This document shows positions 5,035-9,303 of a DNA stretch of 64,000 bases, one piece after another. The notes below the pieces were generated by a model, which worked only from the letters and a program-made list of their open reading frames with translations, was not told where the DNA came from and did not search any database. Every line of letters starts with the position of its first letter. The first letter of the stretch is position 1. Origin of the DNA: Actinomycetes bacterium (GTDB lineage: Bacteria; Actinomycetota; Actinomycetes; S36-B12; GCA-2699445). A program made the position numbers and the translations under genes. Where the stretch lies: positions 1-64,000 of the forward strand of contig JAHZLH010000044.1 in assembly GCA_022599915.1 (NCBI GenBank), given 5' to 3'.

Positions 5035-6762
<1,728 letters not shown>

Positions 6763-7522: not shown

Positions 7523-7807
7523 TCAGCAACCACCAGCGACGGCTGGGATTACCGCGATGGCCGCGGTCTCAGTCAGTGGCGTGGCTAGACCGCCGGCGAA
7601 GCGCACGTCCTCGTCATCCACGTAGACGTTGACGAAGCGGCGCAGTTCACCGGAATCATCCAGGATGCGGGCGGTGATGCCTGGGGCTGCTGCTTCCAGC
7701 GAATCAAGAGCGCTGGAAAGCGTTGCACCGGCATCAGCGAGGGTCAACTCTCCCGCTCCGTCGGTGTAGGTACGCAGGATGGTCGGTATGCGAACGGTTA
7801 CGGCCAT
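7523..7807 (-). CDS. Ubiquitin-like sulfur-carrier protein (MoaD/ThiS/CysO family) ending Gly-Gly-Cys
   Basis: A 94-residue beta-grasp protein (begins MAVTVRIPTILRTYTDG, ends IPAVAGGC). In this family the C-terminal Gly-Gly is adenylated and turned into a thiocarboxylate that donates sulfur. It resembles mycobacterial CysO in the RRFVNVYVDDEDVRF and TPLTETAAIAVIPA segments. Unlike mature CysO it has one extra residue, Cys, after Gly-Gly, so a JAMM-type peptidase would have to remove it first, as known for QbsE and HcyS precursors. ATG 7807 has GGAG six to seven bases upstream; an ATG four codons earlier is too close to any ribosome site. It follows the threonine-synthase-family gene by 72 bases and is probably under the same SAM riboswitch. 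Confidence 0.9.
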   Translation of the reverse strand: MAVTVRIPTILRTYTDGAGELTLADAGATLSSALDSLEAAAPGITARILDDSGELRRFVNVYVDDEDVRFAGGLATPLTETAAIAVIPAVAGGC

Positions 7808-7879
7808 AGTTTTCTCCAATGGTTGTCCGGGCCAAGAGTCGGCCCGGGTGTTGGTTGGTTGTGTTTGTTGCTTGCTGGT

Positions 7880-9157
7880 CTAGTTCAGGGCTTCTCGTAC
7901 TTCGGTGACGCGGGGTTCGATCACGGCGGTGGGACCGACGGAGTCAGCCACCGCGTCTAAGGTCTTGAGGCCGTCACCGGTGTTGAGAAGTACCGTCTCA
8001 GCGTCGGATGACGCGGCGCCGGACGCTAGCAGGCTCTGGAAGGTAGCCAGCGTGACCCCGCCAGCGGTCTCGGCAAAGATTCCTTCGGTTTCGGCTAACA
8101 ACTTGATAGCGGAAACAATCGCTGGATCGCTCACGCTTCCAATCGCCCCACCAGTACGGCGTACGGCGTCGAGCGCATACGGGCCATCGGCAGGGTTGCC
8201 AATTGCCAGACTCTTGGCAATCGTGTTGGGTTTCACCGGTCGCACGACCTGTTCGCCTTCGCTAAAGGCCGTGGCCACGGGGTTGCAGCCATTCGCTTGG
8301 GCTCCGAAGACGCAATAGCGAGATTGTTCGATGAGACCCAATTTCGTGAGTTCCCGCCACGACTTGTCGACCTTGGTCAGTAGCGATCCGGAAGCCACCG
8401 GAATGACGACCTGGTCCGGGGTCCGCCAGCCCAGTTGCTCGGCGATCTCGTATCCCAGTGTCTTGGAGCCTTCGGCGTAGTAGGGCCGCAAGTTGACGTT
8501 CACGAACCCCCAGTTAGCGGTCACCGGATCGCCGATGAGTTCGCTACAGAGCCGGTTGACGTCGTCGTAGTTACCCTCAACCGCCAGTAGCTTGCCGCCG
8601 TAGGTGGCGGTAGTGACCGTCTTCCCCGCCTCCAGGTTGGCGGGAATCAGTACTACCGAGTCCTGTCCGGCACGAGCCGCAGCGGCTGCCACCGCATTGG
8701 CCAGGTTGCCGGTTGAAGCGCACGCCAACGTAGTAAAGCCCAGCCGGCGTGCGGCGGACTGCGCCACCGCAACCACACGGTCCTTGAATGAGTGCGTCGG
8801 GTTACCGCTGTCGTCCTTGACCCACAGCGGGGCGGTCATGCCTAGTCGATCAGCCAGATTGTCGGCTCTCACTAGCTTTGTCATGCCTGGAGCCAGGTTT
8901 GCTTCGTCCTTGGCGTTGGGCGCTACCGGCAGCAATTGCGAATATCGCCACAGCGACTGCGGACCGGCCGCAATCGATTCTCGCGTGATTCCAGCGAAGT
9001 CGTACGAGACTTCTAGCGGGCCGAAACACTCGATGCAGGCGTAAGCCGCTCCCAATGGGTATTGCGCCGCACATTCGCGACAGGTAAGCGAGGTGGCCTG
9101 CCCGAAACTGGGGGCAGCGGATACCTCGGTAGTAGGTGCAGTGGAGATAGTTGTCAT
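7880..9157 (-). CDS. thrC: Threonine synthase-family PLP enzyme (threonine synthase or O-phosphohomoserine-dependent homocysteine synthase)
   Basis: A 425-residue fold-type II PLP enzyme. An N-terminal zinc ribbon (CRECAAQYPLG, CIECFGP) is followed by the PLP lysine in NPTHSFKDR, the STGN phosphate/substrate loop, and a glycine-rich segment (VASGSLL). Family members turn O-phosphohomoserine into threonine. Its control and neighbour argue for a sulfur role: a SAM-I riboswitch directly covers its ribosome site, and the next gene is a sulfur carrier of the CysO type. By analogy with CysM-CysO it might make homocysteine from O-phosphohomoserine and a protein thiocarboxylate; I recall, unchecked, a Streptomyces report of such an enzyme. 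hom and thrB, usual partners of housekeeping thrC, are absent nearby. Family assignment is firm; substrate is open. Confidence 0.88.
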   Translation of the reverse strand: MTTISTAPTTEVSAAPSFGQATSLTCRECAAQYPLGAAYACIECFGPLEVSYDFAGITRESIAAGPQSLWRYSQLLPVAPNAKDEANLAPGMTKLVRADNLADRLGMTAPLWVKDDSGNPTHSFKDRVVAVAQSAARRLGFTTLACASTGNLANAVAAAAARAGQDSVVLIPANLEAGKTVTTATYGGKLLAVEGNYDDVNRLCSELIGDPVTANWGFVNVNLRPYYAEGSKTLGYEIAEQLGWRTPDQVVIPVASGSLLTKVDKSWRELTKLGLIEQSRYCVFGAQANGCNPVATAFSEGEQVVRPVKPNTIAKSLAIGNPADGPYALDAVRRTGGAIGSVSDPAIVSAIKLLAETEGIFAETAGGVTLATFQSLLASGAASSDAETVLLNTGDGLKTLDAVADSVGPTAVIEPRVTEVREALN

Positions 9158-9165
9158 GAAGACCC

Positions 9166-9258
9166 CTCATCTTTCCCGGGTGGGACGGATTTGGCACCAA
9201 TCGCTAGGACGGTTGCCGGGGCTTCATCGGGCCGTTTCCCTCTGCCCCTCTGGATGAG
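9166..9258 (-). promoter_or_regulatory. SAM-I (S-box) riboswitch, probably translational
   Basis: Read on the minus strand from 9258, the order is CTCATC, CAGAG, GAGGGAAACGGCCC, GATGAAGCC, CGGCAACC, GGTGCCAAATCC and GATGAG, which follows the SAM-I consensus block by block, including the GGCAACC and GGTGC-AA signatures. P1 is formed by CTCATC (9258-9253) and GATGAG (9171-9166). The ribosome site GAGGGG (9168-9163) shares its first three bases with the 3' strand of P1, five bases before ATG 9157. SAM binding would therefore hide it. No separate terminator stem is seen. Confidence 0.93.
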
Positions 9259-9303
9259 ACTGTTTAGTTGTGGTGGGGCGGTGCGCATCAGCGCTACGCC
9301 TGC

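What the first reader, a model, noticed from the sequence alone, without database searches (positions are those of the whole stretch)
7523..9157. Candidate protein-thiocarboxylate route to homocysteine: ThrC-family enzyme plus sulfur carrier
The ThrC-family gene and a CysO/MoaD-like carrier are adjacent and share the SAM riboswitch. CysM-CysO makes cysteine from O-phosphoserine by the same logic. O-phosphohomoserine is the ThrC substrate, so replacing its phosphate with sulfur would give homocysteine. I recall, unchecked, a similar Streptomyces system. hom and thrB are absent here.
Basis: inference. Interest (0 to 1): 0.85.

Follow-up and report, generated by a model that had tools for sequence, protein, structure and literature searches.

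The report
MetM–MetO homocysteine route, SAM-riboswitch controlled
This is a two-gene unit in which a relative of threonine synthase and a small sulfur-carrying protein very probably make homocysteine, the precursor of methionine; the same route was described in Streptomyces in 2024, so it is real and well supported but not new.

Summary
On the minus strand there is a SAM-I riboswitch (9164-9260), a ThrC-family gene (7880-9157) and a CysO-like sulfur carrier (7523-7807, ending AVAGGC). In 148 genomes of the class, orthologues (60-81% identical to the window protein) occur in 105, and all 105 have the SAM-I riboswitch just upstream. Fifty-nine of these lack MetX, and 58 of those also lack MetA; only 5 of 148 genomes have neither the ThrC2 nor MetX. 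The same riboswitch-enzyme-carrier unit is in named Streptomyces species. It matches metM-metO of S. albulus (Hasebe et al. 2024), which I could read only as cited in PMC12172450. Two corrections: this genome also has metY-metX, under a different riboswitch class (SAM-IV), so the route is a second one here, not a gap-filler; and the chemistry would be a gamma-replacement, not CysM's beta-replacement. Side observations: the carrier's extra C-terminal Cys recurs in other lineages, and in 26 genomes MetM has no neighbouring MetO while a CysO lies beside cysM.

The parts
9164..9260 (-). SAM-I riboswitch aptamer (RF00162)
   Evidence: 76.3 bits, E 3.7e-16, full length; upstream of 105 of 105 orthologues
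9163..9168 (-). Likely ribosome-binding site GAGGGG, five of six bases inside the 3' strand of riboswitch helix P1, 5 bases before the ATG
   Evidence: sequence and Rfam alignment; translational off-switch inferred
7880..9157 (-). metM (ThrC-family, PLP-dependent; probable O-phosphohomoserine-dependent homocysteine synthase), 425 aa, with N-terminal CxxC...CxxC motif
   Evidence: TIGR00260 263 bits; orthologues 60-81% identical in 105 of 148 genomes; conserved columns
7523..7807 (-). metO, CysO/MoaD-like sulfur carrier, 94 aa from ATG, ending PAVAGG-Cys
   Evidence: PF02597 49.6 bits; CysO 3dwg E 5e-23; separated from CysO by one starred branch (95) in the carrier tree
7526..7528 (-). extra Cys codon (TGC) between the GG motif and the stop
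   Evidence: sequence GGT GGT TGC TGA; same tail in 14 of 77 adjacent carriers and 18 of 81 named loci

Best explanation
The unit is a member of the MetM-MetO methionine route. MetO is adenylated and thiocarboxylated at its C-terminal Gly-Gly by the single MoeZ-type E1-rhodanese protein of this genome, probably after the extra C-terminal Cys is removed by the single JAMM peptidase. MetM (the ThrC homologue) takes O-phosphohomoserine from the Hom-ThrB branch, eliminates phosphate through its PLP, and lets the MetO thiocarboxylate add at the gamma carbon, giving MetO-homocysteine and, after hydrolysis (perhaps by the same JAMM peptidase), free homocysteine. SAM shuts the operon off through the SAM-I riboswitch, whose P1 helix covers the ribosome-binding site. 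Shown here: genes, riboswitch, genome context, conservation, complementarity with MetX/MetA. Reported for Streptomyces, seen here only through a citing paper: MetM as homocysteine synthase, metO as a sulfur-carrier gene. Inferred: the E1 and peptidase steps, tail removal, gamma-addition in this organism.
For: Second thrC in hom-thrC-thrB. SAM-I riboswitch upstream of 105 of 105 orthologues, 103 of them within 104 bp and two at 290-300 bp. 59 MetM-positive genomes lack MetX, 58 of those also lack MetA, and only 5 of 148 genomes lack both MetM and MetX (Fisher p 4e-7, not corrected for kinship); MetX presence changes 26 times on the MetM tree. Three such genomes have no strong Cys/Met-metabolism PLP enzyme at all. 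One E1-rhodanese, one JAMM peptidase and two ThiS-type carriers in the genome. Same unit in Streptomyces. Literature: PMC12172450, citing Hasebe et al. 2024.
Against: No enzyme assay or mutant in this organism. The primary paper could not be opened. The genome also has MetY and MetX, so the pair is not needed to explain methionine prototrophy here. 26 orthologues have no adjacent carrier. A cyanobacterial homologue with 51.6% identity to MetM and a metO-like neighbour was assigned threonine synthase/deaminase activity (PMC12172450), so homology alone does not fix the activity.
Confidence: 0.9

Rival explanations
1. A second, SAM-repressed threonine synthase; the carrier serves something else.
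For: Scores as thrC (TIGR00260 above cut-off); a cyanobacterial homologue has threonine synthase activity (PMC12172450).
Against: SAM control in 105 of 105 orthologues would starve threonine when methionine is plentiful; hom-thrC-thrB already present here; it stands in for MetX/MetA across the class.
Confidence: 0.05
2. A homocysteine synthase that mainly uses free sulfide in the cell; MetO is an accessory or low-sulfide donor.
For: Whole families keep MetM and its riboswitch without an adjacent MetO; in these genomes the best-matching carrier lies beside cysM.
Against: MetO is adjacent in 77 of 105 loci and separates from CysO by a supported branch; Hasebe et al. are recalled (from memory) to report thiocarboxylated MetO as donor.
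Confidence: 0.2
3. A cysteine or cysteate synthase-like enzyme acting on O-phosphoserine.
For: The carrier resembles CysO; ThrC-family members include a cysteate synthase (TIGR03844, 53 bits, far below its cut-off).
Against: The genome has cysE-cysK and cysO-cysM; regulation is by SAM; the substitution pattern seen is with MetX (no such test was made for cysteine genes).
Confidence: 0.03

Closest known systems
MetM-MetO of Streptomyces albulus (Hasebe, Adachi, Maruyama, Hamano 2024, Appl Environ Microbiol 90:e01247-24; read only as cited in PMC12172450)
   Same: ThrC-like enzyme, sulfur-carrier gene metO, SAM riboswitch upstream; Streptomyces-group orthologues are 61-66% identical to the window protein.
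   Different: Here the genome also has MetY-MetX under SAM-IV, and MetO has a Cys after GG, which also occurs in some Streptomyces.
CysM-CysO-Mec of Mycobacterium tuberculosis
   Same: Carrier thiocarboxylate as sulfur donor to a fold-type II PLP enzyme with a phosphorylated substrate (established knowledge); carrier homologous (CysO 3dwg).
   Different: Beta-replacement on O-phosphoserine; a separate CysO-CysM pair exists in the same genome; MetO and CysO split by a supported branch.
HcyS/HcyD with MetY of Wolinella succinogenes (Krishnamoorthy and Begley 2011, as cited in PMC5764234)
   Same: Protein thiocarboxylate route to homocysteine; there (from memory) a residue after GG is trimmed by a metalloprotease, as proposed here for the Cys.
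   Different: There (from memory) the enzyme is a MetY-type sulfhydrylase on an acylhomoserine, not a ThrC homologue on O-phosphohomoserine.
Threonine synthase ThrC (own copy at G000:C26; PDB 2zsj, 6cgq, 1uim, 2d1f)
   Same: Same family and PLP motif SFKDR; same substrate proposed.
   Different: ThrC1 STGNTSAS versus MetM STGNLAxx, and MetM-specific N-terminal CRxC...CxxC and NTGxGLKT motifs.

Membership tests
MetM-MetO route | ThrC-family enzyme distinct from the hom/thrB-linked ThrC | tested here: met
   second thrC in hom-thrC-thrB; against a Streptomyces orthologue the window protein is 64% identical, ThrC1 33%
MetM-MetO route | SAM riboswitch upstream (as for S. albulus metM) | tested here: met
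MetM-MetO route | Adjacent sulfur carrier ending in GG or a processable GG-X | tested here: met
   the tail is GGC, so maturation would be needed (inference)
MetM-MetO route | E1 to form the thiocarboxylate | tested here: met
   one ThiF-rhodanese protein in the genome
MetM-MetO route | Homocysteine formed from O-phosphohomoserine and MetO-COSH | not testable with these tools
   needs an assay
MetM-MetO route | Direct orthology to the S. albulus MetM sequence | tested here: inconclusive
   that sequence was not retrieved; 79 other Streptomyces loci and one Kitasatospora locus were
Threonine synthase (ThrC) | Linked to hom/thrB | tested here: not met
   linkage is with riboswitch and carrier; a hom/thrB-linked ThrC exists elsewhere
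Threonine synthase (ThrC) | Makes threonine and is needed for it | not testable with these tools
   needs an assay or a mutant
CysO-CysM | Carrier beside cysM and a JAMM peptidase gene | tested here: not met
   that operon is at G000:C15, a different locus
HcyS/HcyD pathway | MetY-type enzyme with dedicated carrier and protease in one locus (from memory) | tested here: not met
   the genome's only carrier matches lie at C15 and C44 and its only JAMM match at C15, while metY-metX is at C61

The most novel reading that the evidence does not exclude
In several actinobacterial families MetM works without its own MetO and draws sulfur from the cysteine-route carrier CysO, so one thiocarboxylated carrier feeds both cysteine and homocysteine synthesis; in the window's genome the cell keeps two homocysteine routes, each controlled by a different SAM riboswitch class (SAM-I for MetM-MetO, SAM-IV for MetY-MetX).
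Probability: 0.45. Interest if true: 0.45.

Novelty: new member of a known kind. Interest (0 to 1): 0.35.

Why it matters
It shows that the 2024 Streptomyces route is spread across much of the class, is always under SAM-I control in the sample, and seems to replace homoserine acylation in many lineages. Genes annotated 'threonine synthase' here are probably homocysteine synthases, which matters for auxotrophy predictions and for annotation.

Tried and rejected
Primary paper not held. Idea that MetM fills a missing homocysteine route in this genome: rejected, metY-metX is present. Idea that the GGC tail is an assembly error: rejected, it recurs as GG-TGC-TGA in many genomes. Idea that CysO tails are extended only where MetO is absent: rejected, 18 of 20 CysO from MetO-containing genomes also have tails. 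RNA folding of the leader was uninformative (z -0.29); the covariance-model match is the evidence. The plasmid collection gave only a Nonomuraea replicon, which carries the same unit. An 80-handle limit was met by repeating the class draw instead.

Full report
Observation. The window holds, on the minus strand and in this order, a SAM-I riboswitch (9164-9260), a ThrC-family gene (7880-9157) and a ThiS/MoaD-type carrier (7523-7807 from its likely ATG). The carrier is closest among solved structures to M. tuberculosis CysO, E 5e-23, and ends PAVAGGC. The likely ribosome-binding site GAGGGG lies almost wholly inside the 3' strand of riboswitch helix P1, 5 bases before the start codon, so SAM binding should block translation; this is an inference.

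The rest of the genome (2.44 Mb, 98.65% complete). cysE-cysK is at C17. A true cysO-cysM operon with a JAMM peptidase is at C15. There is one E1 protein with a rhodanese domain and only two ThiS-type carriers, CysO and this one. A full metY-metX pair is at C61 (PRK07812 812 bits; MetX_acetyl_MTB 541 bits), preceded by a SAM-IV riboswitch (RF00634, 96 bits). The organism therefore has two candidate routes to homocysteine, each behind a different class of SAM riboswitch.

Class-wide survey. In 148 genomes of the class, the ThrC2 has orthologues at 60-81% identity in 105 (107 pass E 1e-50, but G007 and G073 have only distant homologues, 41% and 34%). Every one of the 105 has a SAM-I riboswitch upstream, at 7-104 bases in 103 and 290-300 in two. 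MetX is present in 84 genomes (four weak hits excluded). Both: 46; ThrC2 only: 59; MetX only: 38; neither: 5 (G007, G010, G071, G073, G126). Fisher p is 4e-7 without correction for kinship. MetX presence changes 26 times on the ThrC2 tree, so the pattern is not one event. Of the 59, one has MetA; of the 5, G071 has MetA. Three of the 59 (G093, G019, G038) have no strong Cys/Met-metabolism PLP enzyme; G038 is the one with MetA. This is what a replacement for acylhomoserine-dependent homocysteine synthesis would look like. Some of the genomes are draft assemblies, so single absences are weak.

Link to known work. PMC12172450 states that Hasebe et al. [quoted passage not shown] albulus, a sulfur-carrier gene metO, and a role in preventing methionine auxotrophy. 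The paper itself is not held. From memory, marked as such: MetM converts O-phosphohomoserine to homocysteine using thiocarboxylated MetO. Named Streptomyces and Kitasatospora loci carry the same unit: the riboswitch was found in all 20 loci tested (18 Streptomyces, one Kitasatospora, one Nonomuraea) and the carrier in all 81. Price et al. 2018 (PMC5764234) noted that at least one more homocysteine pathway remained to be found.

Mechanism. Shown: gene content and conservation. Inferred: E1 thiocarboxylation of MetO, gamma-elimination of phosphate from O-phosphohomoserine, gamma-addition of the thiocarboxylate, and release of homocysteine by hydrolysis. CysM does a beta-replacement, so the analogy covers the sulfur donor only. 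Against ThrC1, MetM keeps SFKDR and STGN but has its own conserved stretches (STGNLA, NVNxRPxYxEGSKT, NTGxGLKT and an N-terminal CRxC...CxxC).

Carrier variation. MetO and CysO fall on two sides of one starred branch (support 95; short proteins, many forks unresolved). MetO is adjacent in 77 of 105 loci; two of the other 28 sit at contig ends. In the other 26 genomes the best-matching CysO/MetO-like carrier lies beside cysM, so MetM may use CysO there; a few of these genomes have a second, weaker carrier elsewhere. The Cys after GG recurs (14 of 77; 18 of 81 named loci), in the named loci always as GG-TGC-TGA, compatible with a 3-base repeat duplication; the presence of any tail changes 8 times on the MetM tree. 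CysO often carries longer tails, and in L137, L155 and L157 the tail repeats the VTILPAVAGG or VTVLPAVAGG end. Tails imply trimming before E1 can act, presumably by the JAMM peptidase.

Verdict. Novel points are modest: two SAM riboswitch classes on two homocysteine routes in one genome, MetM without MetO, and recurrent carrier tails.

Noticed in passing
G000:C61, L015:6997-7102 (-): SAM-IV riboswitch (RF00634, 96 bits) upstream of metY-metX, a different SAM riboswitch class from the SAM-I on metM-metO.
   Followed up: partly
L137, L155, L157 (CysO loci): CysO has a C-terminal tail that repeats its own VTILPAVAGG/VTVLPAVAGG end after the first Gly-Gly.
   Followed up: partly
L243-L262 (CysO loci): Most CysO in this class carry short tails after AVAGG (18 of 20), while most MetO end at GG.
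   Followed up: yes
loci of genome families f11, f13, f17, f20, f24, f31, f33, f35: MetM with its SAM riboswitch but no adjacent MetO; in several loci (e.g. L041, L059-L061) groEL follows.
   Followed up: partly
G010, G073, G126: Genomes in the sample with neither MetM, MetX nor MetA; assembly gaps or another homocysteine route.
   Followed up: no
window 5035-6672 (-): groEL lies downstream of metM-metO, as in several relatives.
   Followed up: no
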